64,000 nt of DNA from Thermaerobacter sp. FW80 (lineage in GTDB: Bacteria > Bacillota > Sulfobacillia > Thermaerobacterales > Thermaerobacteraceae): contig NZ_CP037895.1 of NCBI RefSeq assembly GCF_004634385.1, forward strand, positions 657,245-721,244. Reading direction: 5' to 3'. A model generated the notes under the pieces. That model ran no database searches, was not told the DNA's origin, and saw only the letters and a program-made list of their open reading frames with translations. Numbering within the stretch: position 1 is the stretch's first letter; the number at the start of each line of letters is the position of its first letter. Shown here in pieces: positions 26,427 to 44,915 of this stretch. The translations under genes and the position numbers were made by a program.

Positions 26427-29456
<3,030 letters not shown>

Positions 29457-29486
29457 GGATCCCGCTCCTTTCCGGCCCAAGTCAAA

Positions 29487-29938: not shown

Positions 29939-30030
29939 GGTCCGCGCCCGCCGCAGGGCAGCGTCCACGGCACCTCCACGTCCCCGCCCGGGTGCCCGGG
30001 ACACGGCCTGCCAAGCGCTCTGTCACAGGA
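29939..30030 (-). pseudogene. Decayed TnpB-like fragment (short)
   Basis: Read on the minus strand, this stretch gives VTERLAGR, then after frame changes GDVEVPWTLP, resembling the N-terminal region of IS200/IS605-family TnpB proteins (LVKERL...EVPWTLPALRR). It shares a 17-base identical core (29961-29977) and the adjoining CGCCCGCCGCA with the fragment at 44021-44200. No RuvC-like motif, terminal hairpins or TnpA are present, so it is only a relic. Confidence is limited by its length. Confidence 0.45.
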
Positions 30031-30038
30031 TCGCCGCG

Positions 30039-31367
30039 TCACCGGTCGACGGAGACCGCGCGCCGTCGCGCGAGGCCGAGCAACTCCAGCCAGCCGGTGC
30101 GCTGCATGCGCAGGGCGGTCCGGGCGTAGACGCGACCGGCCAAGAGGAGCAGCAGGACCGCCACCGCCACCGTCCACGCCGTGGCGCCGGCCACCTCCCA
30201 CCACGCCGCCCGCCCCTGGACCAGTCGGACCAGCAGGGCCATGGGCGCTGCGGGCGGGATCCAGGCGGCCCAGCGGACCACGGCGCCGTCGGGGCTGCCC
30301 AGGCCGCTGACCCCAGCGAAGAACGCCACCGTCAGGAGCAGGGTCACCGGCATCTGCAGCTGCCCCGCGTCCTCGGTGCGGCCGGACATGGCGCCCACCA
30401 CGGCGTACAGCGCCCCGTAGATCAGGAAGGCGAGGGGGAAGGCGGCCAGCAAGGCGATCCACGCCTCCGGCGGCACCACCAGCAGCCCGCCCGTCCCGCC
30501 GTCCGCGCCACCGCCCCAGCGCTGGGCGCCGGGCCAGGCGGCGACGGCCAGCCCCGCCAGCGCCCAGCCCAGCACCTGGACCAGCCCTGCCAGCCCGACG
30601 CCGGCCAGCTTGCCGAAGATCAGCGTCGAGGGCGACACGGCGGCCAGGAGCACCTCGATCACGCGGTTGGCCTTCTCCATGACGATCCCGTTCATCAGCA
30701 CCGCGCCGTACCCCGCCACCTGGACGTAGAGGAGGAACAGCAACCCGTAGCTGGTGAAGAACCGGACCACCGGGTTGCCGTCCGCCCGCGGACCCCCGTC
30801 GAGCACCTCGACCCGCAGCGCCGGCTCCGCCGTCAGCGCCCGCCACTGGTCGGGGGACAGGCCCAGCTGCGCGCTGCGCCAGGCCCCGACCACCGGGGTC
30901 AGGGCCTGCTGCAACAGCGGCGCCAGCGCGTCGTCCGCGGTGGCGGTCGTTAGGACGAAGGCCGCCTCCCCCGCGGGCCCCTCCCCCGGCCGCACCGCGA
31001 GCACCGCGTCCACGTGGCCGTCGCGCAAGAGCTGGCGCACCCGCTCGGGGGTGGCGGGTCCCGGTTCGCGACGAACCCGGAAGCCCAGCTCCTCGGGACC
31101 CGCGGTGGCCACGGCGGCCGCCAAGGCCTCGTAGGTGGCGCCCCCCGGGTCGACCACCGCCACGTCGCGGACCCCCTTGCGGTCGAAGAAGGCGAGGATC
31201 GCCGGCGCGAAGCTCATCAGGGCGATCAGCGCCACGCCCGCCAGGGCGGCGACCAGGAACGCGCCGCTGCGCACGATGGCGCGGAACTCGTGGGCCGCCA
31301 CGACGGCGGTCCGTGGCGCCCGCCGGGGACGCCGCACCCCCGGGACCGGCGCCCGCTCACGCGACAC
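30039..31367 (-). CDS. ABC-2 type exporter permease, NatB-like
   Basis: Membrane subunit of an ABC exporter of the NatB/ABC-2 family, whose best known member exports sodium. The 442 residues have one N-terminal helix (about 35-57), a large extracytoplasmic domain (about 60-195) and five to six C-terminal helices, with NGIVMEKANRVIEVLLAAVSP (about 227-247), the hallmark motif of this family. The GTG at 31367 overlaps the end of the ATPase frame by 11 bases, so the two were translationally coupled. Because the ATPase gene is frameshifted, transporter function is uncertain. Confidence 0.85.
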   Translation of the reverse strand: MSRERAPVPGVRRPRRAPRTAVVAAHEFRAIVRSGAFLVAALAGVALIALMSFAPAILAFFDRKGVRDVAVVDPGGATYEALAAAVATAGPEELGFRVRREPGPATPERVRQLLRDGHVDAVLAVRPGEGPAGEAAFVLTTATADDALAPLLQQALTPVVGAWRSAQLGLSPDQWRALTAEPALRVEVLDGGPRADGNPVVRFFTSYGLLFLLYVQVAGYGAVLMNGIVMEKANRVIEVLLAAVSPSTLIFGKLAGVGLAGLVQVLGWALAGLAVAAWPGAQRWGGGADGGTGGLLVVPPEAWIALLAAFPLAFLIYGALYAVVGAMSGRTEDAGQLQMPVTLLLTVAFFAGVSGLGSPDGAVVRWAAWIPPAAPMALLVRLVQGRAAWWEVAGATAWTVAVAVLLLLLAGRVYARTALRMQRTGWLELLGLARRRAVSVDR

Positions 31368-42064: not shown

Positions 42065-43801
42065 ATGGAACGGGGCCAGGGGCTCACCAGCGGCCAGATG
42101 ACGATGCTCGCCCTCGGCAGCGCCATCGGCGGCGCCTTCTTCCTCGGGTCGGCGGTGGCCATCCGCAGCGCGGGTCCCGCGGTGCTGCTGGGCTTCGCCG
42201 TGGGCGGCCTCGTCGTCTACGTGGTGCTGATGGCCCTCGCCGACCTGACGCTGGAGGACCCGGCCCCCGGTTCCTTCCGCGACTACGCCCAGCGGGCCTT
42301 CGGCCCGCTGGCCGGCTTCGTGGTGGGTTGGGTGTACTGGGCCGGGCTGGCCCTGGCGATGTCCAGCGAGGCCACGGCGGCGGCCGTGTTCCTCCGCACC
42401 TGGTGGCCCGACGCCTCCGGACCCGTGCTGGCCACCGCCATCGTGCTGGCGGTGACGGGCCTGAACCTCTTGGGCGCGCGCCAGCTGGCGCGCCTGGAGG
42501 GCGTGCTGGCGGGCATCAAGCTGCTGGCGGTGGTGGGGTTCATCCTGGTGGCGGGAAGCCTGATCGCCGGGCTGTGGCCCGGGCGCGCACCCGTGGGGTG
42601 GGGCGCCCTGGCCCGGGAGCCCTGGGTGGCCGGGGGCGGGCGCGGATTGCTGGGCGCCATGCTGGTGGTCATGTTCACGTACGCGGGCACGGAGGTCATC
42701 GGGCTGGCGGCGCCGTCGGCGCGGGACCCGCGGCGCACGGTGCTGCGGGCGGCGCGGCGCACCGCCCTGGCCCTGGCGGGCCTCTACGTCGTGGCGGTGG
42801 GCAGCCTGCTGCCGCTGATCCCGACGGCGCGCCTGGACGTGTCGGCCAGCCCGCTGGTGGCCGCCCTGGCGGCCCACGGGCTCGGGACCACCTCGCGCCT
42901 GGTGAATGGCGTGCTGGTGACCGCGATCCTCTCGACCATGCTGGCCGTGATGTTCAGCTTGGGCCGCGTGCTGCGGTCCCTGGCCGAGGACGGCATGGGG
43001 CCCACCTGGCTGGTGGACCCCGGGACGGTGCCGCGCCGCGGGATCGTCTTCTCGGGGGCCGCCATGCTGGGCGGCGTCGCGCTGGGGTACGTGGTGCCCC
43101 GTCAGGTCTACGTGTTCCTGGTCAGCGCCGGCGGGTTCGCCCTGCTGCTGGTCTACGGCAGCATCGTCGCCGCCCACTGGCGGCTGCGGGCCGACGCGGC
43201 GCCAGGGGCGAGGCTGGTGCCCGCCTTCCCCTGGAGCAACGCCCTGGTGCTGCTCCTGGTGCTCGCCGTGCTGGCCGGCATGCCCCTGGTGCCCGGCCAG
43301 GGGATGGGACTGGCGGCCGGCCTCGCCTTGACCGCGCTGGCGGCCGGGGTCTACGGGCTGCGGCGGCGCGGCGGCCGCCGGCCGGCAGGGCGCGGGACGC
43401 GGCGCGGTGCAGACGCGGCGAGCCGCCGGCCCGCCGATGACCGTGCCCCGGCTGCGGCCGGGACGCCGGCGGCGACCCCGGCGCCCGCGGGCGTCCGCCT
43501 GCCGAAGGCCGACCCGGCCCCGGCGCCGGCCTGGGACCTCGGGCAGGAGCTGGCACCCCCGACCCGTCAGCCGACGGCCCCAGCGCCCGCTCCGGCGCAG
43601 CCGGCCCGGCAGCCGGCGCGCCCGGCCGGGAGCGGCGCCCGGCCGACGCCGGCTGCGCCCGCCCCATCCCGAGGCGCGGGAGCAGCGGGCGGCGGGGGCG
43701 GCGGGCCGGCCCGCGGCGAGCGTGGTGCCACCGGAGGCGAGGGACAGCCGCACCGCCCGCGGCGCACCGCCCCTCGGCCCCCGCACCGGCGGACCCGTTA
43801 G
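42065..43801 (+). CDS. APC-superfamily amino acid permease
   Basis: Membrane transporter of the amino acid-polyamine-organocation family; the substrate is unknown. The N-terminus LTSGQMTMLALGSAIGGAFFLGS matches the conserved first helix with the GSxIGxGxF motif, and about 12 hydrophobic helices run to about 435. Residues about 440-578 are a Pro/Ala/Arg-rich tail with no helix, unusual for the family; a start or stop error is possible but the frame is unbroken. The ATG at 42065 has GGGTGAT upstream. It is on the plus strand near the speE-like gene, which makes a polyamine-related substrate conceivable but unproven. Confidence 0.85.
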   Translation: MERGQGLTSGQMTMLALGSAIGGAFFLGSAVAIRSAGPAVLLGFAVGGLVVYVVLMALADLTLEDPAPGSFRDYAQRAFGPLAGFVVGWVYWAGLALAMSSEATAAAVFLRTWWPDASGPVLATAIVLAVTGLNLLGARQLARLEGVLAGIKLLAVVGFILVAGSLIAGLWPGRAPVGWGALAREPWVAGGGRGLLGAMLVVMFTYAGTEVIGLAAPSARDPRRTVLRAARRTALALAGLYVVAVGSLLPLIPTARLDVSASPLVAALAAHGLGTTSRLVNGVLVTAILSTMLAVMFSLGRVLRSLAEDGMGPTWLVDPGTVPRRGIVFSGAAMLGGVALGYVVPRQVYVFLVSAGGFALLLVYGSIVAAHWRLRADAAPGARLVPAFPWSNALVLLLVLAVLAGMPLVPGQGMGLAAGLALTALAAGVYGLRRRGGRRPAGRGTRRGADAASRRPADDRAPAAAGTPAATPAPAGVRLPKADPAPAPAWDLGQELAPPTRQPTAPAPAPAQPARQPARPAGSGARPTPAAPAPSRGAGAAGGGGGGPARGERGATGGEGQPHRPRRTAPRPPHRRTR

Positions 43802-44020
43802 GGCCTGCGGCCCCGGCTCCTGCAGCACCGCCGCGCCCGCTGGAGTTCCCGCTGCTGGGCCTCCCGGCGACCCGACCGGGTGCGGCGGGGACCGAGCACC
43901 GGGGGCCGGACGGGGCCGGCTGCCCGCACCGGATTCCGTCGGCGCCGGGCGCCTTCGCCCCAGGCGCACCCCGCGCCCCCATCCGGGAATGGCGTGCCGC
44001 TCCGGGCACCGCTGCCTGAA

Positions 44021-44200
44021 CGGTTCCACGCCCGCCGCAAGGCCGGGAGCGTCCACGGCACCTCCCCACCCTCACCCCGGGCGCGGGCTTGGCGGCGCTC
44101 CTTCGCCAGGGCAAGACCCCAGGTTGCAGGCCAAGCGGCCGGCGCCCCCACGGAGGCCAGCGCCCGGCGCTGGCGAGGCGTGGGGTAGGGCGCAGCGGTC
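44021..44200 (-). pseudogene. Decayed TnpB-like fragment (N-terminal)
   Basis: On the minus strand the frame gives YPTPRQRRALASVG, then WGLALAKERRQARARG and EVPWTLPALRRAWNR, closely matching the first about 60 residues of IS200/IS605 or IS607 TnpB proteins. Between them, the expected GAARFAWNWG reads as GAGRLACNLG in another frame, so at least two frameshifts are present. The catalytic RuvC part, zinc finger and a matching transposase are missing. A second, shorter relic with a 17-base identical core lies at 29939-30030. Confidence 0.6.
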
Positions 44201-44444
44201 CGCCTGCGACCCGCGCGCATGAGGAAGCCCCGAGACCATCCAGGACATCGGACCTGAAGGACCAGAAGATGCGTGCTCGGACAGCGAACCGGCGGGGGAG
44301 GGCATGCCCAGCAGTCCTCCGATGGGACGCCATCGCCCTGGTCCATCCCGGTCCAGCATCGCGGGGGCCGGCGGGGCGCGGCGGGGCGCAGGCGGTGGGC
44401 CGTGGTAGCGGGCGGGGGCGGTGCACGCCCAGCGCCGGACACGC

Positions 44445-44498
44445 GAAGGCTCCTGGCGGCACCGCGGCGTGTGCCGCCGCGTGCCGCCAGGAGCCTTC
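44445..44498 (-). terminator. Hairpin after tRNA-Lys
   Basis: Perfect 17-base arms around a 20-base inner part that can pair further, 14 bases beyond the 3' end of tRNA-Lys on the minus strand. No U-tract follows. Probable 3' end of the tRNA transcript. Confidence 0.6.
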
Positions 44499-44511
44499 CA
44501 TCGCCGCCCGG

Positions 44512-44584
44512 TGGGCCATGAGGGAGTCGAACCCCCAACACCCCGGTTAAAAGCCGGGTGCTCTGCCAGTTGAGCTAATGGCCC
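44512..44584 (-). tRNA. tRNA-Lys(TTT)
   Basis: Acceptor GGGCCAT/ATGGCCC, D-arm GCTC/GAGC, anticodon stem CCCGG/CCGGG around CTTTTAA (anticodon TTT), and T-loop TTCGACT. The discriminator is A; CCA is not encoded. Confidence 0.95.
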
Positions 44585-44592
44585 TCCACCTG

Positions 44593-44663
44593 CTGGGGCG
44601 GCAGGATTCGAACCTGCGATCGAGGATCCAAAGTCCCCTGCCTTACCGCTTGGCTACGCCCCA
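44593..44663 (-). tRNA. tRNA-Gln(TTG)
   Basis: Starts with T, pairing TGGGGCG/CGCCCCA as usual for tRNA-Gln. The anticodon stem GGGGA/TCCTC surrounds CTTTGGA (anticodon TTG), and the T-loop is TTCGAAT. The discriminator is G. It lies nine bases before tRNA-Lys. Confidence 0.94.
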
Positions 44664-44736
44664 CCGTGGTCCGTGCGCGTGCGGCGCGCCCACCGTGCGG
44701 CCCGCTTCGCTCCCGAATGACGGGCGCCATGGCAAC

Positions 44737-44771
44737 CGGCGGCTCGGAACGCGCCGCGTTCCGAGCCGCCG
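44737..44771 (-). terminator. Hairpin between tRNA-His and tRNA-Gln
   Basis: Perfect 15-base arms around CGCCG, five bases past the tRNA-His 3' end. No U-tract. It may end part of the transcripts or mark a processing site, since no separate promoter is obvious for tRNA-Gln and tRNA-Lys. Confidence 0.55.
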
Positions 44772-44776
44772 TCGTG

Positions 44777-44851
44777 GGTGACTGAGGGGATTCGAACCCC
44801 CGACCTCCAGGGCCACAACCTGGCGCTCTAACCAACTGAGCTACAGCCACC
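44777..44851 (-). tRNA. tRNA-His(GTG)
   Basis: Acceptor GTGGCTG/CAGTCAC with the extra 5' G (G-1) opposite C73 that marks tRNA-His. The anticodon stem CCAGG/CCTGG surrounds TTGTGGC (anticodon GTG), and the T-loop is TTCGAAT. Confidence 0.95.
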
Positions 44852-44915
44852 ACGCAACGCCTGCGCACCATCGCCGCGCCTGCCGCGGTCGAGGGCTGCC
44901 CGCGGGCGGTGCGCC

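What the first reader, a model, noticed from the sequence alone, without database searches (positions are those of the whole stretch)
44021..44200. Relic of a TnpB RNA-guided nuclease gene
The minus strand contains YPTPRQRRALAS, WGLALAKERR and EVPWTLPALRRAWNR in order, matching the N-terminal region of TnpB, with frame changes between them and nothing of the RuvC part. It lies in a 700-base gene-poor gap next to a tRNA cluster. It shows that IS200/IS605- or IS607-type elements once inserted here. The less G+C-rich patch at 44220-44340 could be the matching element end.
Basis: partly seen in the sequence, partly recalled or inferred. Interest (0 to 1): 0.5.

Follow-up and report, generated by a model that had tools for sequence, protein, structure and literature searches.

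The report
Decayed piece of IS607 TnpB element
This is the broken, decaying left part of a common kind of bacterial jumping gene (an IS607-type element carrying the TnpB nuclease gene), of which the same genome still holds eleven full-length copies; it is ordinary genomic debris.

Summary
On the minus strand, window 44305-44021 is homologous to the left end and first ~65 codons of a tnpB family with 11 full-length copies in this genome: blastn 79% over 282 nt, E 2e-62; element DNA profile E 5.9e-46 and TnpB protein profile E 7.7e-18, one frame. Homology stops sharply at 44021; no RuvC part follows. Two copies tested score 528 and 531 bits against IS607_TnpB. Six of 11 (two identical) lie behind a serine-recombinase tnpA, one of which was classified as IS607. 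So: IS607, not IS200/IS605. The less G+C-rich patch is the element's non-coding left part. Relic-private substitutions fall 3/10/5 on codon positions 1/2/3, against 6/3/23 variable sites among ten full-length copies: decay without selection. Three same-genus genomes share the neighbours, show no relic there, and have a 638-755 nt shorter gap. A 10-of-14 match to the element's right tip lies at the breakpoint, suggesting but not proving an internal deletion. Verdict: correct reading, ordinary object.

The parts
44021..44205 (-). Relic of the 5' part of IS607-type tnpB, about codons 3-65 (from the V of VLQAY), with indels; homology ends sharply at 44021
   Evidence: blastn E 2e-62; tblastn 67.9% over 56 aa; protein HMM E 7.7e-18 and nhmmer E 5.9e-46; alignment
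44206..44305 (-). Relic of the tnpB start region and non-coding left part of the tnpB-only form of the element (G+C 67.0% against 75.4% for the window)
   Evidence: Alignment to five kind-A copies; matches reach 44302 with 2 of 5 kind-A copies, 44258 with 2 and 44242 with 1; nhmmer to 44305; composition
44306..44345 (-). Where the outermost left end would lie; too decayed to recognise (weak)
   Evidence: Score of 44290-44420 against the left ends reached by 5 of 200 shuffles, but the best alignment was only a 13-nt piece at 44295-44307; nhmmer envelope reaches 44323
44009..44022 (-). Possible remnant of the element's right-end tip (full-length copies: GTTTCAGGTAACGG; here 10 of 14 identical), abutting the tnpB breakpoint
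   Evidence: Found by eye, then tested: 4 of about 64,000 minus-strand positions of the window reach 10 of 14, none more; 0.145% of random places have so good a match within 12 nt
29939..30029 (-). Second, smaller and more decayed relic of the same part of tnpB in this window
   Evidence: nhmmer E 2e-6; blastn matches with 10 of 10 full-length copies, E from 6e-11 (3 copies) to 2e-4

Best explanation
Window 44305-44021 (minus strand) is the left part of an IS607-family element, most like the genome's tnpB-only form. It once inserted between a permease-like gene and tRNA-Lys, lost most of tnpB (RuvC and zinc-ribbon parts and the RNA-bearing 3' end), and is now decaying without selection. Working elements of this family act as follows (established knowledge, not shown here): the serine recombinase TnpA inserts the element at a GG dinucleotide, and TnpB with an RNA from the element's 3' end is an RNA-guided nuclease thought to favour retention of the element. 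The relic can do none of this: neither the catalytic part nor the 3' RNA remains. Shown: homology, family, truncation point, substitution pattern without coding bias, no relic at the shared locus in three congeners. Inferred: insertion as an element at this place, and how the rest was lost.
For: blastn 79% over 282 nt, E 2e-62; 13 places in the genome match from exactly window 44021 on, 76-83% identical, E down to 2e-62. One-frame protein match E 7.7e-18 and DNA-profile match E 5.9e-46. Eleven full-length TnpB frames in the genome, one broken copy; NCBIfam IS607_TnpB 528 and 531 bits for the two tested. A 190-aa tnpA upstream of tnpB in five distinct copies, one classified as NF033518 transpos_IS607 at 222 bits. 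All 10 compared copies end ...AACGG, fitting GG exchange as described for IS607 (PMC6188088, passages). Relic-private substitutions 3/10/5 by codon position against 6/3/23 variable sites among ten copies. No continuation into the rest of tnpB: 139 of 200 shuffles score as high. G001-G003 share the neighbours but have a 638-755 nt shorter gap and no match to the relic there. Many other fragments of the same element in these genomes.
Against: Curated Pfam/NCBIfam models do not detect the relic on its own. The indels in the coding part cancel, so the minus-strand frame stays open for 247 aa; at 75% G+C long open frames are common, and the codon-position pattern speaks against a maintained protein. 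The relic explains about 285-320 of the extra 638-755 nt in the gap; the rest is unexplained. The empty site could not be aligned to the base, and a weak match of G002 inside the gap (window 43578-43644, E 3e-4) would, if real, lower the G002 difference beyond that point to about 450 nt. In the same-family genome G004 the gap is larger (4.7 kb), not smaller; no relic match there either.
Confidence: 0.96

Rival explanations
1. Sub-question of the best explanation, version 1: an internally deleted element keeping both ends, left end plus tnpB codons 1-65 joined directly to the right-end tip, possibly once mobile in trans through TnpA of other copies (a miniature derivative).
For: 10 of 14 match to the right-end tip exactly at the breakpoint, 0.145% of random places as good. 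In the same genome, relic L059 runs from tnpB ...GAGGACGT straight into AACGG, the last five bases of the tip.
Against: The match was noticed by eye before being tested and only 12-14 nt are involved; a MAFFT alignment instead spreads the following bases along tnpB with gaps. The L059 junction is so short that it is not among the four best tip matches of that locus. Relics L060 and window 29939-30029 have no tip at their breakpoints (best matches in the scanned stretches 9 and 8 of 14, elsewhere), and a 9-of-14 match beside the breakpoint of left-end relic L122 lies in bases that also resemble continuing tnpB. The outermost left end is not recognisable. No second copy with the same junction was found among the fragments.
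Confidence: 0.4
2. Sub-question, version 2: simple 3' truncation plus decay; the rest of the element was lost with neighbouring DNA and the right-end-like 14-mer is coincidence.
For: Fragments ending at other places in tnpB exist in the same genome, so deletions with arbitrary ends are common. The right end as a whole does not align significantly downstream (19 of 200 shuffles as good).
Against: The tip match at the exact breakpoint.
Confidence: 0.55
3. A retained N-terminal TnpB-derived protein (for example a regulator) encoded by the open minus-strand frame 43798-44541.
For: Indels cancel and keep the frame.
Against: Relic-private changes hit second positions most (10 of 18), with no third-position bias. 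No match to it at the locus in three congeners. Known TnpB-derived regulators keep near-full length (recalled, no call).
Confidence: 0.02
4. Chance similarity in G+C-rich sequence.
For: The coding part of the relic is 78.9% G+C and has no curated-model hit.
Against: E 2e-62 (blastn), 5.9e-46 (profile DNA) and 7.7e-18 (profile protein); apart from the second relic, the next window matches of the DNA profile are at E 0.036 and worse.
Confidence: 0.005

Closest known systems
IS607-family insertion sequence, tnpB-only form in the same genome (C1:2682004, 2452664, 651056, 1733769, 2676711)
   Same: Same left-end sequence upstream of tnpB and same first codons; 78-82% DNA identity over 225-287 aligned columns
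   Different: Relic lacks tnpB after codon ~65 and the 3' RNA region (Rfam Transposase-2 in the one copy tested); carries indels and has an unrecognisable outer left end
IS607-family insertion sequence with tnpA + tnpB in the same genome (C1:1344498, 1215636, 1179038, 1069810; two identical copies on contig C2)
   Same: tnpB codons 3-65, 80-83% DNA identity
   Different: Their upstream part encodes tnpA and does not match the relic upstream of tnpB
IS200/IS605-family elements (Y1 TnpA)
   Same: Also carry TnpB; the IS200_TnpB model scores 265 and 260 bits on the two copies tested, below its cut-off of 425
   Different: The relatives fit IS607_TnpB above cut-off (528 and 531 against 350) and pair with a serine recombinase; the only Y1 matches in the genome at E 0.001 are two pieces at C1:2565888-2566123

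Membership tests
TnpB (relic of) | Sequence homology to TnpB N-terminal region | tested here: met
   67.9% over 56 codons, E 7e-16; HMM of ten own TnpBs E 7.7e-18; not detected by Pfam/NCBIfam models alone
TnpB (functional) | RuvC catalytic domain and zinc ribbon | tested here: not met
   No continuation past codon ~65: 139 of 200 shuffles as good; no domain hits
TnpB (functional) | Guide RNA at the 3' end of the element | tested here: not met
   Rfam Transposase-2 (75.5 bits; that it is the guide RNA is my inference) at the 3' end of the one copy tested; none in window 43400-44900 up to E 1, where 8 matches were listed: 3 tRNAs and 5 below their gathering score
IS607 family | TnpB of the IS607 type in the closest full-length relatives | tested here: met
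   NF038280 IS607_TnpB 528 and 531 bits, cut-off 350, for 2 of 2 copies tested of 11
IS607 family | Serine-recombinase TnpA with the family | tested here: met
   For related copies, not for the relic: 190-aa ORF in five distinct copies, one of them classified: NF033518 222 bits, PF00239 79.5 bits. No tnpA was seen in kind-A copies, whose left ends are about 150 nt
IS607 family | GG at the element ends, no target duplication | tested here: inconclusive
   10 of 10 compared copies end in AACGG; in the relic only a possible AGCGG tip; empty site too diverged to test
IS200/IS605 family | TnpB of the IS200/IS605 type and Y1 transposase | tested here: not met
   IS200_TnpB below cut-off; genome holds only two Y1 pieces, over 100 kb from the nearest of these tnpB copies

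The most novel reading that the evidence does not exclude
The relic is a member of a once-mobile miniature form of this IS607 element: left end plus tnpB codons 1-65 joined directly to the right-end tip and moved by TnpA in trans.
Probability: 0.08. Interest if true: 0.25.

Novelty: already known. Interest (0 to 1): 0.08.

Why it matters
It matters little beyond annotation: it shows that an IS607 element sat beside this tRNA cluster, and that TnpB elements in this genus leave many decaying fragments besides the full-length copies. This relic was not seen by the curated profile models tried; it was found only through full-length copies in the same genome.

Tried and rejected
Direct profile scans of the relic gave nothing: Pfam twice, NCBIfam twice, PDB sequences once. 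The identification was made through the genome's own copies.

Base-precise empty site: tried with same-genus loci from G001, G002 and G003 and a same-family locus from G004. The spacer between the permease-like gene and tRNA-Lys is too diverged to align; only the length difference is usable.

A shared breakpoint for all N-terminal relics was considered: their ends in element coordinates are 194 (this one), 170-190, 169-187 and 149, and 254-256 for the contig C2 fragment. Not the same, so not claimed.

Continuation of tnpB beyond 44021 was tested and rejected (139 of 200 shuffles as good). The whole right end was tested downstream and was not significant (19 of 200); only the tip at the breakpoint stands out.

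A sub-threshold Rfam match inside the relic (CRISPR-DR20, 44144-44179, 20.5 bits against a gathering score of 42, E 0.31) was taken as chance.

Literature: two searches (IS607/TnpB/relic; Thermaerobacter/IS607/transposase). I read passages of PMC9956272 and PMC6188088, and saw only listings and abstract beginnings of the others. The genus name was a guess of mine from recall and was not tested; 0 of the 10 papers listed (of 90 that matched) hold it.

Full report
What is there. The minus strand of window 44305-44021 is homologous to the left end and first ~65 codons of a tnpB-bearing insertion sequence. Whole-genome blastn with 43790-44520 lists the query itself and 18 further matches at E 0.001. 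Thirteen of the 18 begin at exactly the same query base, window 44021, and are 76-83% identical (best E 2.0e-62 over 282 nt), showing a sharp breakpoint. Of the other five, three are shorter pieces of the same part of tnpB, one is a hairpin in the query matching itself, and one (C1:655946, E 5e-4) matches the flank, not the relic. A DNA profile of the five tnpB-only copies finds 44305-44021 with E 5.9e-46. A protein profile of ten full-length TnpBs, run over all six frames with filters off, has one significant match in the window, E 7.7e-18, codons 10-66, one frame. tblastn of a single copy gives 67.9% identity over codons 11-66, E 7e-16. Codons are counted from the V of VLQAY.

Which family. 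The genome (3.04 Mb, 3 contigs) has 12 matches to the TnpB zinc-ribbon family PF07282. Eleven are in full-length TnpB frames and one, C1:1842458, is a broken copy. The two tested of these eleven score 528 and 531 bits against NCBIfam IS607_TnpB (cut-off 350) and fail the IS200_TnpB cut-off. The copies are of two kinds. Kind A, five copies, has about 150 nt of non-coding left end before tnpB. Kind B, four chromosomal copies and two identical copies on contig C2, has a 190-aa gene upstream (seen in all five distinct copies), classified in one copy as IS607 transposase NF033518, 222 bits, with a resolvase domain. All 10 compared copies (identical C2 copies counted once) end in AACGG, matching the GG exchange reported for IS607 (PMC6188088, passages read). 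The relic matches kind A upstream of tnpB and kind B only inside tnpB, so it most likely derives from a kind-A element.

Why it is a relic. Nothing of tnpB after codon ~65 can be recognised downstream: the local score is reached by 139 of 200 shuffles. Rfam finds the Transposase-2 RNA at the 3' end of the one copy tested (75.5 bits) and no such RNA in 43400-44900. In the coding part there are indels of +2, -2, -1 and +1. Substitutions private to the relic are 3, 10 and 5 at codon positions 1, 2 and 3 (of 62, 62 and 61 sites), whereas sites variable among ten full-length copies are 6, 3 and 23. The full-length copies have evolved as coding sequence; the relic has not. Its minus-strand frame is nevertheless open for 247 aa because the indels cancel and the DNA is very G+C-rich.

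When and where. Three genomes of the same genus have the same neighbours: the permease-like gene (named by eye from its translation, not tested) on one side, tRNA-Lys and following tRNAs on the other. The distance from the last aligned base of that gene to the tRNA-Lys marker is 638 (G002), 755 (G003) and 755 (G001) nt shorter than in the window (computed). A weak further match of G002 inside the gap (E 3e-4) would lower its figure to about 450. No match to the relic part was found there by local blastn at E 0.001 or in the genus search (in which the best 40 candidates per genome were scored). G004, same family, has a larger gap of 4.7 kb and no relic match. The spacer itself is too diverged for a base-precise empty site. 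The relic accounts for about half or less of the extra length in the window.

How the rest was lost. Reading past the breakpoint the relic continues TTCAGGCAGCGG; the right-end tip of full-length copies is (GT)TTCAGGTAACGG. Only 4 of about 64,000 minus-strand positions of the window match the 14-base tip this well (10 of 14), one of them exactly at the breakpoint; 0.145% of random places have such a match within 12 nt. The match was seen by eye first, so this is suggestive only, and MAFFT spreads the same bases along tnpB with gaps. Another relic, L059, goes from tnpB ...GAGGACGT straight into AACGG, though this junction is too short to rank among its four best tip matches. Two others (L060; window 29939-30029) show no such tip, and L122 has an ambiguous 9-of-14 match. 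I give 0.4 to an internal deletion that kept the tip and 0.55 to plain truncation.

Fragments of this element are common. In addition to full-length copies, the own genome shows pieces of the left part (C2:46746, C1:1783299, 1886861, 1830200, 544858 and 687185, the last being window 29941-30000) and of the right part (C1:1821444, 382035, 1531275, 648185, 2128321, 1356809, 2012625). The three congeners have fragments too. The finding is one item of an ordinary population of decaying insertion-sequence copies.

Verdict. Observation confirmed, interpretation supported and narrowed to IS607. Already known kind; low interest.

Noticed in passing
window 29939-30029 (minus strand): A second, shorter relic of the same tnpB part (nhmmer E 2e-6), in the gap between ORF 30039-31367 (permease-like by eye) and ORF 26427-29480 (valine-tRNA-ligase-like by eye).
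   Followed up: partly
L117:1822-1920 (G000:C1:2128321-2128419): A solitary right end of the element, 98% identical over 100 aligned columns and including the 3' hairpin region, stands without tnpB between a dapA-like and an RNase-J-like frame (named by eye); TATAAT follows one base after the element's final GG. Might be a promoter or RNA taken over from the element; untested.
   Followed up: partly
L058:1747-3774 (G000:C2:46746-48773): A tnpB fragment interrupted by about 1.4 kb near codon 85; the interrupting DNA was not examined.
   Followed up: no
window 44445-44498: 54-nt stretch downstream of tRNA-Lys that is 87% identical to its own reverse complement (self-match), possibly a transcription terminator.
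   Followed up: no
G000:C1:2565888-2566123: Two overlapping partial matches to the Y1 transposase family in different frames, likely a broken IS200/IS605 TnpA.
   Followed up: no
L063 and L064 (kind A against kind B elements): The tnpB-only and the tnpA+tnpB forms share tnpB and the right end, but blastn aligns them only from tnpB nt 7 on; upstream I saw only a short shared AACAGCT. The tnpB-only form therefore need not be a simple tnpA deletion of the other.
   Followed up: partly
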